NCBI RefSeq assembly: GCF_002915175.1
Contig: NZ_NXEJ01000003.1
Span: 124,001 to 188,000 of the forward strand
Origin: Agrobacterium rosae
GTDB lineage: Bacteria; Pseudomonadota; Alphaproteobacteria; Rhizobiales; Rhizobiaceae
Reading direction: 5' to 3'
DNA: 64,000 nt
Positions 50,081-58,731 of this stretch are shown here, in pieces. Below the pieces are notes generated by a model. That model saw nothing but the letters and a program-made list of their open reading frames with translations, was not told where the DNA came from and ran no database searches. The translations under genes were made by a program, and so were the position numbers. Each line of letters starts with the position of its first letter. The first letter of the stretch is position 1.

Positions 50081-50509
50081 TTACTTGTAAGTCCGATTAA
50101 TTAGCTTGCAGAACCAACCCTGAAGCACAATAAAGATGTACACCGACAACATGACCGGCGGAGTGAATACCGGCGCTGTGATAAACACCATTGCTCGTCC
50201 GGTGTCCCGGATCCACATGTCTAGGAGGTATTCGTAGCCTGGCGGTACGGTTGAGTTCATCCACCACGGCTCTTTTGGATTATATGACGCAATTCGCCAC
50301 TCAATGTACCAACTCACGGCTGTGGCACCAGCGATCGCTAATCCGACACAAGCGGTATATGTCAGTAGAATAATCGCACAACGTCGCCATAAACCAGATG
50401 CCCTGCGCGCATGCATCAACATAAAATAAGAGACGATAAAAATCGCAAAGATCACCGATGCGCCCGCATACCGCAGCAATGTCATTTCTAATTCCATGCA
50501 GGTCCCCAT
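50081..50509 (-). CDS. Small membrane protein downstream of the M16 protease gene
   Basis: 142 residues (or 138 from a second ATG). Three hydrophobic segments: YAGASVIFAIFIVSYFMLM, RCAIILLTYTACVGLAIAGA and AMVFITAPVFTPPVMLSVYI, with a loop containing EPWWMNSTVPPGYEYLLDM. It starts 17 bases after the protease stop on the same strand and is likely the last gene of that operon. No family recognised. A role in transporting products of the protease is possible but unsupported. Confidence 0.6.
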   Translation of the reverse strand: MGTCMELEMTLLRYAGASVIFAIFIVSYFMLMHARRASGLWRRCAIILLTYTACVGLAIAGATAVSWYIEWRIASYNPKEPWWMNSTVPPGYEYLLDMWIRDTGRAMVFITAPVFTPPVMLSVYIFIVLQGWFCKLINRTYK

Positions 50510-50526
50510 CCAGCCACTAACATGCC

Positions 50527-53283
50527 CTATCGTTTTGGCATTTGAACCAACACTGCGATATTGTCCGTACGGAATGCGGCACGCGCGTGGGATGCTAGCA
50601 AAGACGGGGTGAGGCGCTTACCAAGGCTATTCACGCGGTTTAGATATCCCCCATTACCGTATCGGAGATAGCTGACCGCTAGCCTACGTAACCATGTATT
50701 CGGATCGGCGAGCCGGCCATTTTCAGCAAACTCAATGTCAGCCTGAAGTCGGTAAACATCTGCCTTAAACGCCAACTCTGGCATTCTCTCAAGCACACCA
50801 ATAGCCGCGTTCGCCAGTCCACTGGCTTTTTCAGGTGCACATTCGAACGACAGATTGCCAATAATCCGGTTCGAGTCTGGATCAAGTTCAAGTTCGAACT
50901 GCACGGAATAAATGCCGCCCAGTTCCAGCCTCAGTTTGTTCTTGAGCGCTTGCTGAGTCATTGGCGTCAGCGTCGATACAATGAATGCACCCTCTGGTGT
51001 CCAGTTCATCGGTGAAAAAAAAGACATTTTCACGCGTGCCTTGTCGGTATCAAATGTTTCGATATTGGCCTTATGGATACCATTGCGTTGAAGCACGGGT
51101 TTCTTGGAAAGCTTTTTTTTGCGGGAAACTCCGCCAATCACCTCAGTGAAGGCCGTCTTGATGATGCCGTCCGGAGACGATCCGACCACGAACCAAGTGA
51201 CAGGTGCAGACAGTAATCCCCGTGCTGCAGTAGACAGGCTGTCTATCGTAACGCGACTGGTGTCGATGGTGGACAGCTCTTTAGCAACGGAACCATATAA
51301 AAGCTGCGTGTAGTCGTCGGTGTGTTCGATGGATGCTGCCTGTATCCGGAACTCGTCCAATGCTTCCTCTCGAACCATACCGAATGCAACACTCGAAGCA
51401 TATTGCTCGAGAAGCGATGGCAATTGATCCGCGTGAGCGGCGACGGCGATATCCAGTGATCCTTTTTTGAGAACCCAACTCCAGCGTTGCTTCTGTGACT
51501 GTTGCCAGCGATCAAATTCATTTTGTGACCAGAAGCGGAAGCCGCTCTGCTGCCATAGCTGGATAGCGGTTTGGGAGAGGATGCTGCCGAATTCGGCGTT
51601 CATGTAACCAGGATGGGACTGCGCCGACACATAGATCTTGTCATCCGGAGTTTGTCGCTCCAGCCATACGACATGATCGCCATTCGAAAGGTGCCATTCT
51701 ATGATCGATGGATCCTTGTTGTGGGTCTCCGAGATGATTTTGCCGGTACGTGACGACAGCTGAGCATCTCGTGGCCAATTCGGCGGCTCTTCTTCTTTGG
51801 CAGCGCGCGGTGTCCCGACGATCTCTGGCAACGCAGGAAGTATATCGCGCGCTCGTAACCTCGCATTCGCAATGTTGATTTCGTCAACAGTGGGCAGCAC
51901 CCTCGTGACGTTGCCTTCAAGCTGATAGAACAGAATCTTATCGGGCGAGGATAGCATGTCCCGCATCCGTTGATTGAGACCCTCAAACGTTATGCGATCC
52001 AGCAAAGCAGTCGTTTTCTCTGCGCGCGCCTGCGGGTCTTCGACCACGGAGCTAGTAAGGACAGCGGAGGCGATTTTGTCCTCCCATTCGGCGAACGTTC
52101 TTTTTTGCGCGGCTTCAACGTTGTTTGTGTTGATGCGCCGCGCATTGGCTATCAATGAATGGAAGCCATCCTCGGAAATCCCGTTTCGGCGCAGGCGCTC
52201 GACCGTCTCCAGCAGTATTGGCCAAGCTTTTGCATGATTGTGCGTGCGTGCATTGAAAGCGAATATCACCCGTTCCTCGGTCGTCTCCTGCGCGACAAAT
52301 GTGAGAGCATCGACTTTCTGACGGAAGTGAAGGGCTTGGCTTTGAACGGCGTCTCGTATGAGGCGTGTCAGAAAATAATTTTGTAGATACGCGAACTGGC
52401 CATCTTCACTTTTGCGATCTGGCATGGGTATGCGCAGTGCGTAGGTGACCTGAGACGAGGAGCCTTTTTCATCCTGAACCAGTCCCGTCGTTATACCGTT
52501 CCTCAGCGGAAGCTTGATATATGAGCGATCCGGGCGTGGCTGCTTCGGCGGGGAGCCGAAAAGCCGCTGGATGGCGTTCACGGCGATCTGCTTGTCGATG
52601 CGACCGGACAGGATGAGGGTCATGTTGGCGGGTACATAAAATCGCTCGTGAAATGCACGAATGTCGGCAATGGTAACCTTCTCTATGCCGTCACGCGTGC
52701 CGATCGTCGGGCGGTCCACATAACGTGATCCGACGCGCAAGACAGCTTTCTTCTGACGGCTTATGCGGTCGGCGACGCTATTTCCTTGGCGCAACTCTTC
52801 AAGGATGACGGATCGTTCTTTTTCCCAGTCTGCTTCCAGCAGTTTCGAACCAAATGCGAGGTCAGACATAAGCGCCAGAGAACCTTCGAGATCGAGCGCA
52901 TCGTTTGGACGCGTACGCACCATGAATTGAGTCTCGGTTTCGCGGGTGACGGCATTGATTTGAACGCCGGTCCGCCATCCGATATGCTGGAAATAGCGGT
53001 GTAAGGTTTCAGGATGTGCCTCGCTTGACTGGAAAACCATGTGTTCGAGTATGTGCGCAACGCCGCTTGGCGTTTCCTCGTCGACAGAACCCGCATGCAC
53101 GATCAAACGGATGTTGAACGGATCTTCCGACTTTTCGCTATCATAGATGATGTAGGACAGTCCGTTATCGAGCGTTCCCCGTGTAAGCCGAGGATCCCAT
53201 GTTGCTTCGCCTGCAAAACTGGTCTGCGCGCAAAAGAGGATAAGGCCGATGGACATGGTGACGAGACAAAAAAATTTCATCAT
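50527..53283 (-). CDS. Periplasmic M16-family zinc metalloprotease (PqqL/FusC-like)
   Basis: 918 residues, close to E. coli PqqL and Pectobacterium FusC. A signal peptide (LVTMSIGLILFCAQTSFAG) sends it to the periplasm. The inverted zinc motif HILEH is at residues 77-81, with the third ligand in ERSVILEE (156-163). Three further M16 half-domains follow, the last with RLELGGIYSVQF. Its ATG shares one base with the TonB receptor stop (TAATG), so the two are made together. FusC and PqqL cut imported iron proteins or act in siderophore-linked iron uptake; a similar job is inferred here. Confidence 0.88.
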   Translation of the reverse strand: MMKFFCLVTMSIGLILFCAQTSFAGEATWDPRLTRGTLDNGLSYIIYDSEKSEDPFNIRLIVHAGSVDEETPSGVAHILEHMVFQSSEAHPETLHRYFQHIGWRTGVQINAVTRETETQFMVRTRPNDALDLEGSLALMSDLAFGSKLLEADWEKERSVILEELRQGNSVADRISRQKKAVLRVGSRYVDRPTIGTRDGIEKVTIADIRAFHERFYVPANMTLILSGRIDKQIAVNAIQRLFGSPPKQPRPDRSYIKLPLRNGITTGLVQDEKGSSSQVTYALRIPMPDRKSEDGQFAYLQNYFLTRLIRDAVQSQALHFRQKVDALTFVAQETTEERVIFAFNARTHNHAKAWPILLETVERLRRNGISEDGFHSLIANARRINTNNVEAAQKRTFAEWEDKIASAVLTSSVVEDPQARAEKTTALLDRITFEGLNQRMRDMLSSPDKILFYQLEGNVTRVLPTVDEINIANARLRARDILPALPEIVGTPRAAKEEEPPNWPRDAQLSSRTGKIISETHNKDPSIIEWHLSNGDHVVWLERQTPDDKIYVSAQSHPGYMNAEFGSILSQTAIQLWQQSGFRFWSQNEFDRWQQSQKQRWSWVLKKGSLDIAVAAHADQLPSLLEQYASSVAFGMVREEALDEFRIQAASIEHTDDYTQLLYGSVAKELSTIDTSRVTIDSLSTAARGLLSAPVTWFVVGSSPDGIIKTAFTEVIGGVSRKKKLSKKPVLQRNGIHKANIETFDTDKARVKMSFFSPMNWTPEGAFIVSTLTPMTQQALKNKLRLELGGIYSVQFELELDPDSNRIIGNLSFECAPEKASGLANAAIGVLERMPELAFKADVYRLQADIEFAENGRLADPNTWLRRLAVSYLRYGNGGYLNRVNSLGKRLTPSLLASHARAAFRTDNIAVLVQMPKR

Positions 53284-56165
53284 TAGAACGTTGCCTTGGC
53301 GCCGACCCAGACTGTGCGGCCGATTATCCAGGGGTTTGATGTTGAGCTAGTTGCGTTCCCTGTTTCGTCGAACAGATTGTTGACTTTGACATTAAATGCG
53401 AGGCTGGCATCGGCTTTTTTATAGACTGTGTAGTCGGCCGACAAATCGACGGTCAAAGCTGCGTCGAAGTCGAAGTCTTCGTAAATTTCGTGAGAAACTC
53501 CATCGACGATTATTGTTGCATCGGTATTTTTTGCGCCGGTATAGCGAAGATTGTAATTGGCCGAAACATCTACGTGCAGGCTGTCATCTAACCACGTGCT
53601 GGAAAGCCCGGTCTGGAGGCGGAGCGGAATATCCATGTTGCCGGTTACGACAGCGAAGCCGGCCTGAGTGTATGACTTGCCCTTGTACCAGATATAATCG
53701 TCCTCAAAATTGTCTTCGAAGTAGCTGTCATTGGACACCTTGCTTTTGGACCACGTTATCGAGGCGTTAAAGAGAAGCTGTTCGAGACGATCAATAGAGG
53801 TCACGTCGATCTCTTTGGAATACTCGGCGGTCGCAGACTGATATGCACCATGAGCGTCGTTGGTGAGGATACGGCCTTGACCGCTTGTCTGCGAAGCGAA
53901 CTGATCTTTCGATCGGCGATCAAGAAAACGCAGCCTCCAATCTCCATCGAAAACTGGATCCTTGCCGGAGAGACCAAAGGTGATCTCGTCGGTGTATGGT
54001 GTGTTGAGATCGGAAGCGCTGTTGGCATAATTCCCCGTAATAACAGCGGACGTCCAAGTATCACCGACAACTCCACCGGTTTGACCACGTGTGTATGTTT
54101 GTGCTCGTGGCTGCTGATCCCGAATTGCGAAAGCAAGGCTTTGTGCGTTGTAGTACCGGTTGACACCTGCCGAGACCGAAAGGTCATCCCAAGGCGTCAC
54201 GGTTGCGACAAGACGAGGCGAGACATCGAGGTTTTTCATGTAGTCGTCGTATGAAAGTCTCGCACCAGCCCGTACGTTCAGCCAATCCCAGGTTTGATCG
54301 ATCTCTGCGTAGGTATTGAAGGCGTTCAGTTCAGCTTTGATGTCGAACGCCTTGTAAATAATCTTGGTACTTGCGAATTGTTCGCTGCTGCACTCTTCAG
54401 TCGTGTTGCAATTAAACGCGGTGATCGTGCTCGAAACGTCGCCAAGCGAGGTATAAGCGCCATAGTATAAAGCGTCCTCTGGGCGCCTGCGATAAGCGTT
54501 GGTGTGTGTATATTCTGTGCCAACGGTGAACGAACCATTCCAGATATCACCCGTCAGTTCTTCCGACCATCCGAGTTGCTCCTGACCTTGCTCCTTGTCT
54601 CCGGTTGCGCCGTCGTAGCAGCGAGTGGTGGTTTTGGTGGGGTCGGTGCGGCACCATTCGGATAGTTCAGTCGAGGTGAAGATACCGCCGCCATTTTTGA
54701 CGGCACGTGTAGTCTGTTGCACAAAGGCTTTGGCAACATTCCCGTTCATGTCGTTTATTGTAACCGACTTGCCATAGGTCAACTTGGACCGCAATTTGAC
54801 ATTTGTAAGCGCTACGCCACCAAGGCTGAAATCGTTAAATTCATAGTCATGTTGAAGCTTGGAGGTGAGGCTTTTGGTTTGCACATCCATCGCCATGTTC
54901 CTCCACGTGGCGTTTTCAAAGAGTTGGGTATAGTCTGTGTAGGCGCCCTCAAGTGTGAAATCGCCGAGATCGGTTTCCGCTGTCATCTGCGAGCGATAAA
55001 ATTTGTTCTCGGAATCCTGTTCCACCCGCCGATTTTCCGTGTAACGGTAGCTCTTGTCCTTTTCGGTGGAAGCGGTGGACGTGCTGTATTGTCCCAGCAC
55101 CGAGACGTTGTCCGTTACCGGACCGCTGACCGAAATGGACGACCGCCGTTTCCTGAAGTCGTTGGGTGCGACGTCATTCGGGTTCAATCCGTCTTTCGTA
55201 GCGAGGTTAAAAGTCGTCCAGTCGCTAGACGTATAGTCGGTCGTGACACTTGTTGTCCAACGGTCCTTCTGGGCATCCATCAACTTGTAAGAAACAACGC
55301 CACCCTGGAAATTTCCGTATTTGGCAGAAGCGTTGCTGTCGATGACAGTAGCCTCTTCTATGAAATCAGTGGGAACATAGACTGTTTGCGAATGAAGCCC
55401 GAAGACCCGGTCAGCGTTTGGAGCCGCTCCTTCTGCAGACGAGGGCTCTTCTGACCCGTAGCGCTCTTGACTGCCGGTCACATTGTTGATCTCCATGCCG
55501 TTGATCATGAAGTTGTTCTCATAGACTCGCGCACCTGAGATCGAGACTTCACGGGGCTTAAGGTCGATCACGCTTTGGGCCGTGATGCCGGCGTCGTCGT
55601 CAACATCGTTCTGGTATTGCACATTGGGAAGGTTGCGCAGAATACCGTTGGCATCGTTACCTTCCGCACGGACTGTGATCTGTCCACCGTGAAGCGTACT
55701 TGTGCCGGTGTCAGCGACACGATCTGTACCGAGACCCACGCCACCACGCGCGCCTTTGACCACAATTGTTTCAAGGACGGTTGTACCGTCAGTTGCCTGC
55801 TCGGTTGTGGATGCCCCGACAAGCGAAACCGCGTTGGAACCGGACAAACGGATCGTAACGTTTGAGCCAGACAACATAGCCTCAAGGGCTCTAAGTGGTG
55901 CCATTTTGCCTGATACGGGGTTTGATCGCTTGCCGCTGACAACAGCCGCCGCATAACCAACCTGCCACCCGCTCTGCCGGATGAAACTGTTGATGGCTGC
56001 GTTCAGTGGCTGCGCCTCTATCGCGAACGTCACTGTATTCTCTACAAAGATTTCCTGCGCATGAGAACTTTTGGGGATCAGATAGGTAGATGTAACCGCT
56101 GTCGTAACCAGTAACGCAGCGAAACTCTGTCCGCGCTTCGACCCTGTATGCACTGTCGTCCCCAT
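53283..56165 (-). CDS. TonB-dependent outer-membrane transducer with N-terminal signalling domain
   Basis: 960 residues. Signal peptide to about 36; secretin/TonB N-terminal signalling domain at about 45-117 (FAIEAQPLNAAINSFIRQSG); TonB box ETIVV at 132-136; plug containing ITVRAEGNDANGILRNLPNV; then a 22-strand-type barrel ending WVGAKATF with the terminal Phe needed for outer-membrane assembly. Two cysteine pairs (505/516 and 586/592) probably close disulfide loops on the cell surface. The signalling domain and the FecR/sigma genes upstream mark it as a cell-surface signalling receptor. Its ligand is unknown; large size and the coupled protease favour a protein or peptide. Confidence 0.9.
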   Translation of the reverse strand: MGTTVHTGSKRGQSFAALLVTTAVTSTYLIPKSSHAQEIFVENTVTFAIEAQPLNAAINSFIRQSGWQVGYAAAVVSGKRSNPVSGKMAPLRALEAMLSGSNVTIRLSGSNAVSLVGASTTEQATDGTTVLETIVVKGARGGVGLGTDRVADTGTSTLHGGQITVRAEGNDANGILRNLPNVQYQNDVDDDAGITAQSVIDLKPREVSISGARVYENNFMINGMEINNVTGSQERYGSEEPSSAEGAAPNADRVFGLHSQTVYVPTDFIEEATVIDSNASAKYGNFQGGVVSYKLMDAQKDRWTTSVTTDYTSSDWTTFNLATKDGLNPNDVAPNDFRKRRSSISVSGPVTDNVSVLGQYSTSTASTEKDKSYRYTENRRVEQDSENKFYRSQMTAETDLGDFTLEGAYTDYTQLFENATWRNMAMDVQTKSLTSKLQHDYEFNDFSLGGVALTNVKLRSKLTYGKSVTINDMNGNVAKAFVQQTTRAVKNGGGIFTSTELSEWCRTDPTKTTTRCYDGATGDKEQGQEQLGWSEELTGDIWNGSFTVGTEYTHTNAYRRRPEDALYYGAYTSLGDVSSTITAFNCNTTEECSSEQFASTKIIYKAFDIKAELNAFNTYAEIDQTWDWLNVRAGARLSYDDYMKNLDVSPRLVATVTPWDDLSVSAGVNRYYNAQSLAFAIRDQQPRAQTYTRGQTGGVVGDTWTSAVITGNYANSASDLNTPYTDEITFGLSGKDPVFDGDWRLRFLDRRSKDQFASQTSGQGRILTNDAHGAYQSATAEYSKEIDVTSIDRLEQLLFNASITWSKSKVSNDSYFEDNFEDDYIWYKGKSYTQAGFAVVTGNMDIPLRLQTGLSSTWLDDSLHVDVSANYNLRYTGAKNTDATIIVDGVSHEIYEDFDFDAALTVDLSADYTVYKKADASLAFNVKVNNLFDETGNATSSTSNPWIIGRTVWVGAKATF

Positions 56166-56234
56166 GTCCAGAGCGCTAGGCGCGCCCTTACAAAACCACG
56201 TCTGCGCCGCTGATCACGACGCCTCAATGGAATT

Positions 56235-56266
56235 GACGAAAGAGGAGAATGGATCTCACAAAAAAA
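56235..56266 (-). promoter_or_regulatory. Candidate ECF sigma promoter of the receptor-protease operon
   Basis: On the minus strand TTTTTTTGTGAGATC is followed after exactly 13 bases by CGTC. The identical arrangement precedes fecR. GTGAGATC and CGTC sit at the spacing of ECF -35 and -10 elements. The transcript would start about 60 bases before the receptor ATG. Confidence 0.6.
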
Positions 56267-56275
56267 GTTGAGTGT

Positions 56276-57295
56276 TTAACGAATGATTGTGATGCCACCA
56301 GGAAGGTAGGTGACCTTGCCACCGACAGCGCTGACAATTCCGTTGAGAGCTTCTTTCGCGCTATCGACCCTGTAGTTCCCGCTGACAGGTATATCCAGGA
56401 TTGATCTGTTCAAAACGAAGACCTGTGAATTCCAGTATCGGGAGATTTCGTCCAGAGCCTGACGAAGTGGCTTTTCGGTGAAGACAATTCGACCTTCGCG
56501 CCATGCCAATGCCTCGTCTTTATCGGTGGGCAATGGATCCAAAATATGTTGGTCCGTAGCGCGTGCTGTTTGTCCAGGTGCCAGATAGACCGGGCGTATG
56601 TTTTCGCGTTGATGGGCGAGATACACCGATCCTCGCTCGAGCGTTACGGTATCATCATTCTTTCCTAACCGCACATCGAAAGCCGTGCCGACAACCGTTG
56701 TCGTGGTGAATTGTCCGGTCACACGAAACGGCACAGATTGATTGTGGACGACATCGAACCAAGCCTCACCTTGAATGATCCGCACCCCACGCTTTGTCGC
56801 AGAAAAGTCAAGCGCAACTGCACTGTCCGAATTGAGTTGCATAGTCGTACCATCGGGAAGTTTGACGGTGCTGATCTGCCCGACTTGCGTGGTGAAGTCA
56901 GCTTTCGGCGATCCATTAAATGCCAGTATCATCTGGCTTGTCCCTGCGACCATCACAATAGAAGCAACAGCTGCGAGGGCATACCGACGTCGTACGCCGG
57001 CATCATTTGCCGGGTTTTTGGGTTTGTTGGACGTCGAAGGAACGGTTTCGTTGGCGTCCTGCAGTTTTTTTGAAACAACAAGTGTTTCAGGACAGCTCCA
57101 GAGATTTTTTACCCGCTCTAAAGCTTCAGCGTGATTGGGACAAGCAGCTAACCATTCCTGGAACGCTTCACGTTCGGCAGCCGACGGTGGACCACCGGCG
57201 TGAATAATTATGAACCACTCCAGCGCCTGATCCGTGACGGGGTCGGAGTGCTTGTAGTTTTCTTCTTCCGACAGGGTGTCATTCATCGAAACCAT
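56276..57295 (-). CDS. FecR-family anti-sigma/sigma regulator
   Basis: 339 residues from the ATG behind CGGAAGG. An ATG 30 bases upstream lies only a few bases from the candidate -10 element and is unlikely. The N-terminal DUF4880 segment (ALEWFIIIHAGGPPSAAERE, then AFQEWLAACP) binds the sigma factor; RYALAAVASIVMVAGTSQMI is the single membrane helix; a periplasmic FecR domain (ISTVKLPDGTTMQLNSDSAV) and a C-terminal STN-like/DUF4974 part follow. It passes the receptor's signal across the inner membrane to the sigma factor. Confidence 0.92.
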   Translation of the reverse strand: MVSMNDTLSEEENYKHSDPVTDQALEWFIIIHAGGPPSAAEREAFQEWLAACPNHAEALERVKNLWSCPETLVVSKKLQDANETVPSTSNKPKNPANDAGVRRRYALAAVASIVMVAGTSQMILAFNGSPKADFTTQVGQISTVKLPDGTTMQLNSDSAVALDFSATKRGVRIIQGEAWFDVVHNQSVPFRVTGQFTTTTVVGTAFDVRLGKNDDTVTLERGSVYLAHQRENIRPVYLAPGQTARATDQHILDPLPTDKDEALAWREGRIVFTEKPLRQALDEISRYWNSQVFVLNRSILDIPVSGNYRVDSAKEALNGIVSAVGGKVTYLPGGITIIR

Positions 57296-57332
57296 CTGTG
57301 CCTTCCGAACCGGACGTTCCCACATGTACCTA

Positions 57333-57364
57333 GACGTTTCATATCTGGCGATCTCACAAAAAAA
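57333..57364 (-). promoter_or_regulatory. Candidate ECF sigma promoter of fecR
   Basis: TTTTTTTGTGAGATC, 13 bases, then CGTC on the minus strand, identical in the 15-mer, the gap and the tetramer to the site upstream of the TonB receptor. No such site precedes the sigma factor gene. This implies that the sigma factor drives fecR and the receptor but not itself. Confidence 0.6.
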
Positions 57365-57389
57365 TACACCAACAGGTTTGACGCCATCT

Positions 57390-57914
57390 TCAAGGAGGAT
57401 CGATCTGTGATTTTAGATCGAGTAACACGCCCATCGCCAGCTTGATGTCGTTGAATACGGTGTTCGGTGAAACGCTCAGCAGTTTTGCGATTTCCGGATA
57501 GGAAATTCCATCGATCCTGCTCAATATCCAGACCTGCTGGGTGCGAGGCGGGAGTTTTAGCAGGGCCTGAGAAAATGCGCGGAGCAAATCTCGTTGAATC
57601 ACTAAGGCCTCGGGAGATGGGTCTGTGGAGGCAATATTGTTTAGCTCATTTTCCTCAAGATTCCGGGCTTCGTAAATCGACCTGACCTTGGCCTTACGCC
57701 AATGATCAATGGCCAAATTTTTCGCTGTCTGCCACAAAAATGCCTCTGGGTTTTCCAGTGGATGCACTACCGAGGCCGTCCGGGCGCGCAGGTAAGCGTT
57801 TTGAACGATCTCTTCAGCCAGAGCATGCTCGTGGACGATGCGGACAATGCGATGACGAAGTATGTCTTGCATTCGAATGAATGCGGTATCCAACTGATCG
57901 GTGGTATCGCCCAT
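57390..57914 (-). CDS. FecI-like ECF sigma factor
   Basis: 174 residues. Region 2 (HRIVRIVHEHALAEEIVQNA, with FLWQTAKNLAIDHWR) and region 4 (LPPRTQQVWILSRIDGISYP, then EIAKLLSVSPNTVFNDI) are both complete. It directs RNA polymerase to iron- or ligand-responsive promoters when FecR relays occupancy of the TonB receptor. It stands first in the minus-strand group; fecR starts 95 bases after its stop behind its own candidate promoter. Confidence 0.93.
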   Translation of the reverse strand: MGDTTDQLDTAFIRMQDILRHRIVRIVHEHALAEEIVQNAYLRARTASVVHPLENPEAFLWQTAKNLAIDHWRKAKVRSIYEARNLEENELNNIASTDPSPEALVIQRDLLRAFSQALLKLPPRTQQVWILSRIDGISYPEIAKLLSVSPNTVFNDIKLAMGVLLDLKSQIDPP

Positions 57915-58104
57915 TCGCCTTCGATCTTTCGGTCCTGCAAACTAAAGAATGGATAGTAATCTATACAAAATTTGTCATGTTATTAGTTTGGGCCGAAAAA
58001 GATTTCAAGGATAATGTGTGCACACTATCAAGACTGGGAGATTTGCGCTTTGCGTGTCTCAGGTTCGAGTCCCTTCAAGAGCTACAAGAGGTTTGCCGCT
58101 TGCC

Positions 58105-58731
58105 TCAGTTCAGCAGACCCGAGGTTGTTCTGAGCGCTTCCGACCAAACCGCATATCCTGCTCCATTTAGATGAACCAGATCTGGCAAATAATAACGGAA
58201 CATGGGCAGTCCGTTTTCCCCGATGAGGCCGACGTTCGGGTCAAACCACGTCGTGTGTTCGCAACTGTTACACCAGTCGCGCGCCTCTTGGTTAAAGAGA
58301 TCGAATTCATGGCGGTAAATCCAGCGCGCTGGACTTTGCTTGATCGCCAGAACAACCACATCCGCGCGTGGTAACGCTTGAGAGATGCGATCACGCAAAT
58401 CCTGCAGGTGCCGAAGAGTTGTTTCAGCCTTGAGGCCGTCGCTAGCAATATCGTTCTCACCGAAATAAAGCAGCACTTTGGCTGGCTTCAGTGGAACAAG
58501 GACTTGGTGCAGGTAGTGGCTGGCAGAAAGGTACGTGCCGCCGCCAAATCCGAGATTGACGATATCCAGCGAGCCAAGATCCTCGGCGACTGAGCTCCAG
58601 ATCCGAAATGAGGAGGATCCATACAAGGCGATCGGGTTGTCTGGAAGACCGATGCGCTGAAGGCGGGCAAGAATGGCAATGATATCGTTTTCGTGTCGAC
58701 TGGTGCCGATATTAGCTGGGAAGTCGTACAT
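58105..58731 (-). CDS. SGNH/GDSL-type hydrolase
   Basis: 208 residues without a signal peptide. Block I is altered to ALYGSSSFRIW (nucleophile Ser in GSSS instead of GDS), block II is LGFGGGTYL, block III is YFGENDIASDG and block V is DLVHLNGAGYAVW with the Asp-His pair. The fold hydrolyses acyl esters. It stands alone between the iron-signalling genes and the sugar-acid genes. The substrate is unknown. Confidence 0.85.
   Translation of the reverse strand: MYDFPANIGTSRHENDIIAILARLQRIGLPDNPIALYGSSSFRIWSSVAEDLGSLDIVNLGFGGGTYLSASHYLHQVLVPLKPAKVLLYFGENDIASDGLKAETTLRHLQDLRDRISQALPRADVVVLAIKQSPARWIYRHEFDLFNQEARDWCNSCEHTTWFDPNVGLIGENGLPMFRYYLPDLVHLNGAGYAVWSEALRTTSGLLN

What the first reader, a model, noticed from the sequence alone, without database searches (positions are those of the whole stretch)
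50081..57914. Surface-signalling iron-type system with a coupled M16 protease: possible host-protein piracy
Seen: sigma factor, FecR, 960-residue TonB transducer with signalling domain, M16 protease sharing a base with the receptor stop, and a small membrane protein. Known: FusA/FusC of Pectobacterium import plant ferredoxin and cut it in the periplasm; PqqL is another M16 protease linked to TonB receptors. Those known systems are not, as far as I know, controlled by a dedicated FecIR pair. Inference: a ligand-sensing import-and-digest system for a protein or large peptide, perhaps of plant or microbial origin.
Basis: partly seen in the sequence, partly recalled or inferred. Interest (0 to 1): 0.75.

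Follow-up and report, generated by a model that had tools for sequence, protein, structure and literature searches.

The report
Inducible protein-import-and-digest gene system
A plant-associated bacterium carries genes that look built to sense something large at the cell surface, pull it through the outer membrane and cut it up, with the on-switch, the gate and the cutter apparently wired together as one unit.

Summary
The window, from the same genus as Agrobacterium tumefaciens MEJ076, carries fecI-fecR-receptor-M16 protease. The best solved relatives are FusA (ferredoxin receptor) and FusC (ferredoxin-cutting protease), so this is a Fus-type protease-associated import system. Its control differs from Pectobacterium Fus. 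The receptor has a signalling (STN) domain, and the element TTTGTGAGAT-N14-CGTC stands before fecR and before the receptor. In a sister species the protease gene lies about 230 kb from the receptor, yet the same element stands before it. All 10 exact copies in eight genomes belong to this system. Receptor and protease occur in the same genomes and never one alone (4 of 61; 3 of 297). A genus of another class carries an equivalent FecIR-FusA-FusC-FusD operon (7 of the 9 genomes with the protease, one of them damaged). The block has lower GC than its surroundings and its flanks differ in the closest relative, so it probably moves. The 142-aa membrane protein is not a core part. The ligand is unknown: the FusC residues that touch ferredoxin are not kept, no iron-control site was found, and 'host protein' stays an inference. 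Verdict: a new, ligand-inducible variant of a known kind.

The parts
57390..57914 (-). fecI-type ECF sigma factor (174 aa)
   Evidence: Pfam Sigma70_r4_2 and r2 over cut-off; TIGR02937 over cut-off; kept next to fecR and the receptor in 7 genomes incl. BG6 and G014
57333..57360 (-). promoter-like element TTTGTGAGAT-N14-CGTC before fecR
   Evidence: exact match; same place in G030 and G028
56276..57325 (-). fecR-type anti-sigma/sigma regulator (349 aa as listed; start probably near 57295)
   Evidence: Pfam FecR 65 bits, DUF4880 44.9; Gly-Thr inside VVGTAF, the self-cleavage bond named in PMC9249621 passages
56235..56262 (-). promoter-like element TTTGTGAGAT-N14-CGTC before the receptor, with a shared upstream stretch AATCATTCG..CTCAACTT to about 56292
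   Evidence: 7 of 7 fecI-fecR-receptor loci, spacing fixed; the longer form occurs once in the window against 0 in 100 shuffles
53283..56165 (-). FusA-type TonB-dependent receptor with STN domain (about residues 46-115), TonB-box-like ETIVV at 132-136 and extended plug loop 225-269
   Evidence: best solved relative FusA 4zgv, then YddB; alignment; loop lengths
50527..53283 (-). FusC-type M16 protease with signal-peptide-like N terminus; zinc motif H77-x-x-E80-H81, downstream E163
   Evidence: FusC 6b03 E 3.2e-95 over residues 12-917, PqqL 5.9e-42; catalytic residues kept
50485..58018 (.). block shared with A. tumefaciens MEJ076 (82.5% over 7551 positions); flanks unrelated; probable mobile unit
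   Evidence: blastn, and GC 52.0% against 57.1% for the rest of the window
50081..50509 (-). 142-aa membrane-protein ORF, judged not part of the core system
   Evidence: no Pfam or NCBIfam hit; remnant only in MEJ076; outside the shared block

Best explanation
A ligand-inducible Fus-type import system. Shown by sequence: a FusA-family outer-membrane receptor with a signalling domain, a FusC-family two-half M16 protease, a FecI sigma factor and a FecR regulator, and a shared ECF-type promoter element before fecR, before the receptor and, in a sister species, before the unlinked protease gene. Inferred: when the right ligand, most likely a small protein or large peptide, binds the extended loops, the STN domain changes its contact with FecR, FecR is processed, FecI is freed and switches on fecR, receptor and protease together. 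The ligand is then drawn through the barrel with the general TonB and cut in the periplasm by the M16 protease, which releases peptides and perhaps a metal or cofactor. The peptides could enter through a BacA/SbmA-type carrier. Iron as the gain is plausible but not shown.
For: FusA and FusC are the top solved relatives. Zinc motif kept in 16 of 16 aligned proteases. Plug loop 45 residues and 691 residues after it, against 42 and 688 in FusA, and against 19-20 and 576-611 in two STN control receptors. Receptor and protease in the same genomes: 4 of 61 and 3 of 297, none with one alone; also both, unlinked, in Roseibium suaedae. Promoter element: 10 exact copies in 8 genomes, 6 before the receptor, 3 before fecR, 1 before the unlinked G014 protease. 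Homologous Vibrio loci add an SbmA/BacA carrier, and ExbB, ExbD, TonB and FhuF as annotated. An equivalent FecI-FecR-STN receptor-FusC-FusD operon in a genus of another class.
Against: No ligand evidence. FusC's ferredoxin pockets are not kept: Y298/M392/A428 read Q/N/T and R180/R332/R796/R798 read K/V/S/Q. No FusB or FusD in the window; one TonB_C match in the genome, under its cut-off and without the FusB motif. No RirA-type TGA-N9-TCA site before fecI; in the second lineage the best Fur-consensus matches are no better than shuffles. Roseibium has receptor and protease without STN, so the signalling is not essential to the pair. In G014 the protease lies beside siderophore-transport-like genes (by eye). 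Both structure predictions failed.
Confidence: 0.6

Rival explanations
1. Small-molecule version: the receptor takes up a peptidic siderophore or other small iron carrier, and the M16 protease opens its peptide part in the periplasm to free the iron.
For: FecIR systems known so far mostly serve siderophores, citrate and haem (PMC9249621, abstract and passages). The window genome's own paralogous FecIR-STN system, beside what looks by eye like a siderophore-binding protein, has nearly the same promoter (TGTC in place of CGTC). FhuF is annotated in the Vibrio loci.
Against: Receptor and plug loop have FusA-like size, not that of the two STN control receptors. FusC-type proteases hold a chamber for small proteins (PMC6793856 discussion).
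Confidence: 0.17
2. The protease is a signalling or quality part: it cuts FecR or clears the STN-FecR complex rather than digesting cargo.
For: Same promoter and operon as fecR; FecR-type regulators are processed by periplasmic proteases (PMC9249621 passages).
Against: Related receptor-protease pairs occur without FecR or STN in Vibrio, Pantoea, Pectobacterium-type loci and Roseibium (60-locus data).
Confidence: 0.08
3. Defence: the protease destroys plant or bacterial antimicrobial peptides or bacteriocins, in the manner of the rhizobial peptidase HrrP, and the receptor is a sensor or decoy.
For: HrrP, an M16A peptidase of Sinorhizobium, degrades plant NCR peptides (table in PMC12731061, passages). 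Plant-linked hosts: Rhizobium BG6 and BG7 come from Prosopis nodules.
Against: The closest solved protease is FusC, not the M16A type; strict co-occurrence with a FusA-type importer. HrrP itself was not compared.
Confidence: 0.08
4. Plant ferredoxin itself is the ligand, as in Pectobacterium.
For: FusA/FusC kinship; plant-associated relatives.
Against: FusC contact residues for ferredoxin not kept; no FusB, which touches ferredoxin in Pectobacterium (PMC13253070 passages).
Confidence: 0.15

Closest known systems
Fus, ferredoxin uptake system of Pectobacterium (FusA, FusB, FusC, FusD)
   Same: FusA-family receptor directly followed by a FusC-family M16 protease; catalytic residues and extended plug loop
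   Different: STN domain, FecI and FecR added, with a shared ECF-type promoter; no FusB or FusD in the locus; ferredoxin-contact residues of FusC not kept
YddB-PqqL of E. coli
   Same: receptor plus M16 protease pair; second-best solved relatives
   Different: more distant (about 21% for the protease); no STN, described as Fur-regulated (PMC6793856 passages)
FecIRA-type cell-surface signalling
   Same: FecI, FecR and STN receptor, promoter before the receptor
   Different: the regulon includes a protein-cutting protease and a FusA-type receptor
HasR-HasI-HasS of Serratia (recalled, not tested)
   Same: surface signalling in which the inducer is a protein, the haem-loaded hemophore (recalled); HasR's STN is the closest solved STN here
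   Different: imports haem, not the protein, and has no M16 protease (recalled)
FusA homologues with di-haem cytochrome c peroxidase (PMC6793856, section 6)
   Same: the second, STN-less receptor of G014 overlaps such a gene
   Different: that one is a separate locus with no protease beside it and lacks the promoter element

Membership tests
Fus / protease-associated import system | receptor of the FusA family | tested here: met
   4zgv best, E 3.1e-40; FusA motifs aligned
Fus / protease-associated import system | extended plug loop and extracellular loops | tested here: met
   loop 45 against 42 in FusA and 19-20 in two controls (a third control was misaligned and not counted); by alignment only, no usable model
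Fus / protease-associated import system | single-chain FusC-family M16 protease with zinc motif | tested here: met
   6b03 E 3.2e-95 over 12-917; HxxEH and E kept
Fus / protease-associated import system | dedicated FusB-type TonB (RRxxYP motif) | tested here: not met
   none in the window; one TonB_C match in the genome, without the motif (motif from PMC13253070 passages). Grinter 2019 does not require FusB for the wider family
Fus / protease-associated import system | FusD / SbmA-type carrier in the locus | tested here: not met
   none in the window operon; three SbmA_BacA matches elsewhere in the genome
Fus / protease-associated import system | import and cleavage of a protein | not testable with these tools
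   needs experiment
Pectobacterium ferredoxin system in the strict sense | ferredoxin-contact residues of FusC (F1 and F2) | tested here: not met
   0 of 7 named residues identical in the window protein (the alignment near Y298 has gaps)
FecIR-STN cell-surface signalling | ECF sigma factor and FecR regulator side by side | tested here: met
FecIR-STN cell-surface signalling | N-terminal STN domain and TonB box in the receptor | tested here: met
   five solved signalling-domain or full-receptor matches, Pfam STN under cut-off; ETIVV read by eye
FecIR-STN cell-surface signalling | sigma-dependent promoter before the receptor | tested here: inconclusive
   conserved element found; that FecI uses it is inferred
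HrrP-type M16A peptidase | closest kinship to HrrP | not tested
   HrrP sequence not compared

The most novel reading that the evidence does not exclude
The system's inducer is an intact foreign protein: the cell senses that protein at its surface through the same receptor that swallows it, and only then makes the receptor and the periplasmic protease that eat it. It would be an inducible protein-eating regulon, found in at least two lineages, whose cargo differs from plant ferredoxin.
Probability: 0.42. Interest if true: 0.82.

Novelty: new variant of a known kind. Interest (0 to 1): 0.63.

Why it matters
Fus systems raise an open question: which proteins do bacteria import whole? Ligand identity is hard to find because Fus expression does not report on its cargo. 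A Fus system with its own surface-signalling circuit turns that round: the promoter element is a ready reporter of the ligand, so libraries of proteins or plant extracts can be screened by light output instead of growth. It also shows, by the unlinked protease carrying the same promoter element, that receptor and protease are under shared control, and that this wiring occurs in two separate lineages.

Tried and rejected
Structure prediction: receptor on a 2-sequence alignment gave pLDDT 25.4, protease on 3 sequences 40.6; both useless, so no fold search was run.

PqqU as an analogue: the PQQ importer paper (PMC12124388, outline and passages) has no mention of PqqL or FusA; PMC11658791 (passages) says PqqU was formerly YncD. 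So it is not YddB and was dropped.

Iron control: no TGA-N9-TCA site in 250 nt before fecI in the window or MEJ076. In the second lineage the best match to the Fur consensus was 10-11 of 19, reached by 59 to 333 of 500 shuffles. Not used as support.

Other M16 of G014 (C22, 965 aa): only about 30% over the N-terminal quarter; not this system. Its kinship to HrrP was not tested.

Small membrane protein as a core part: rejected. GDSL hydrolase at 58105-58731: no hit in any other locus searched and outside the shared block.

Literature: searches for the FecIR-Fus combination gave no paper that describes it. Searches returned none; one search listed 15 of 135 papers; some searches returned 13, 2 and 2. 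I opened passages of seven of the papers listed in these searches for this point. PMC6793856 main text has no FecI, FecR, sigma factor or STN, but its figures and S1 Table, which list gene contexts, could not be seen. So novelty of the combination is not proven.

Of 13 one-mismatch promoter matches, four lie at a paralogous FecIR system in G000 and G028; the other nine were not examined. The reversed control gave 2 matches at up to one mismatch.
Full report
WHERE. The window lies in G000:C17:124001-188000 of a 5.46 Mb genome. Its closest named relative for this locus is A. tumefaciens MEJ076.

OBSERVATION. Family hits are clear for the sigma factor, FecR and both M16 N-half domains, weaker for STN and Plug. 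The receptor stop and protease start share one base.

WHAT IT IS. Against solved structures the protease is closest to FusC (E 3.2e-95, residues 12-917), then PqqL (5.9e-42). The receptor is closest to FusA (3.1e-40), then YddB (4.2e-16), and its N terminus to signalling domains. The zinc motif is kept in 16 of 16 aligned proteases. The plug loop is 45 residues against 42 in FusA and 20 and 19 in two STN receptors used as controls; a third control was misaligned by the program and is not counted. The part after the plug is 691 residues against 688 in FusA and 555-611 in the three controls.

DISTRIBUTION. Full-length protease matches: 4 of 61 relatives, 3 of 297 family genomes, 1 of 385 of the class, 5 of 398 of the phylum at E <= 1e-40 (the window's genome is counted in each). 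The receptor at E <= 1e-80 is found in the same 4 of 61 and the same 3 of 297. Fisher p values are 2e-6 and 2e-7, but most pairs are adjacent, so linkage explains much. The telling cases are G014 and Roseibium suaedae, which keep both genes though they are far apart: in G014, C18:211320-214040 and C18:444320-447184.

THE WIRING. The stretch between fecR and receptor carries the element CTCAACTTT..TTTGTGAGAT-N14-CGTC in 7 of 7 loci that have fecI, fecR and receptor. In eight whole genomes the core TTTGTGAGAT-N14-CGTC has 10 exact matches: before the receptor in 6 (G000, G030, G028, G014, G288, G166), before fecR in 3 (G000, G030, G028) and before the unlinked protease of G014 in 1; none in Roseibium or G1033. 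The G014 protease promoter shares the further upstream stretch AATCATTCG too. At up to one mismatch there are 23 matches, against 2 for the reversed pattern. Four of the 13 one-mismatch sites are at a paralogous FecI-FecR-STN receptor system beside a siderophore-binding-type gene (identified by eye) in G000 and G028; there the last box reads TGTC. The simplest reading is that FecI of this system reads CGTC and the paralogue's reads TGTC. That is inference.

RELATIVES. Protease and receptor trees both join the alphaproteobacterial genes with two Vibrio plasmid loci (supports 100/99 and 100/100), apart from the FusA/FusC group. The two trees are not compared branch by branch, several inner forks are open, and PqqL, YddB, Vibrio and others are flagged as long branches. 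The six STN receptors form one group (100/99); the STN-less receptors of G014 and Roseibium lie outside it. The Vibrio loci carry receptor, M16, an SbmA/BacA carrier (472.8 bits), and ExbB, ExbD, TonB and FhuF as annotated. The Pantoea locus has TonB, receptor, M16 and ABC transporter. G924 and G1025 carry proteases nearly identical by eye to Pectobacterium FusC and are taken as Pectobacterium. No FecI or FecR hit was found in the two Vibrio, Pantoea, G924, G1025 and G1044 loci with the window's proteins, nor in five of the six with G1033's (G1025 was not included).

SECOND LINEAGE. G1033, of another class, has FecI, FecR, STN receptor, M16 and an SbmA-like ABC transporter. In its genus 9 of 119 genomes hold the protease at E <= 1e-60. 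By tblastn 7 of the 9 have all five genes; one of these (G1089) has a stop in the protease and a frame change in the receptor. G1098 has STN receptor, M16 and transporter but no FecI or FecR hit in 11.8 kb. G1105 is a remnant with no receptor. The receptor promoter region shows CTGAAAA-N15-CGTC in 7 of 7, the same geometry. Its receptor falls on the FusA side of the tree, so the STN/FecIR coupling arose at least twice or was lost repeatedly.

MOBILITY. The match to MEJ076 covers 50485-58018 and nothing outside; GC is 52.0% against 57.1% for the rest of the window. BG6 and BG7 carry the block on large plasmids.

LIGAND. Unknown. Residues of FusC that touch ferredoxin (PMC6071955, figure legend passages; PMC12731061 passages) are Y298, M392, A428 and R180, R332, R796, R798. 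The window has Q, N, T and K, V, S, Q (position 798 read by eye). So plant ferredoxin handled in the same way is unlikely. The genome has one TonB_C match, under cut-off and without the FusB motif, and three SbmA_BacA matches. No iron-control site was found.

LITERATURE SEEN. PMC6793856: outline with abstract, sections 6 and 11, passages. PMC12124388: outline with abstract, passages. Passages only: PMC7921472, PMC6963963, PMC9249621, PMC11658791, PMC5095587, PMC12731061, PMC13253070, PMC10669500, PMC6071955. HasR-HasI-HasS is recalled.

JUDGEMENT. Family membership and shared control of receptor and protease are well supported by sequence; protein uptake is a good inference from kinship; host-protein piracy and iron gain are open.

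Noticed in passing
G000:C5:146500-152000 (L087:4504-9867): A paralogous FecI-FecR-STN receptor system beside a siderophore-binding-type protein (by eye) has the same promoter box with TGTC in place of CGTC before fecR and before the receptor; two sigma circuits in one cell may be kept apart by one base.
   Followed up: partly
L059:5340-9232 (G014:C23): A second FusA-like receptor without STN (43% to the window's) overlaps a di-haem cytochrome c peroxidase (CCP_MauG, 161.8 bits), the protease-free Fus type named in PMC6793856.
   Followed up: partly
L038 and L062 (Rhizobium BG6 and BG7 plasmids): The loci are 99.99% identical, but the receptor lies in two frames in BG6 and in one in BG7.
   Followed up: partly
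L106 (G1105:C19:33000-44500): Remnant of the second-lineage operon: parts of FecI, FecR and M16 next to each other with the receptor gone.
   Followed up: no
L031:7314-10211 (G014:C22): A separate 965-aa M16 protein on a contig with plasmid-partition-like genes (by eye); a possible HrrP-type peptidase, not compared.
   Followed up: no
window 57915-58018: About 100 nt before fecI are strongly kept in MEJ076, including TGACAAATTTTGTATAGATT; a possible regulator site not identified.
   Followed up: no
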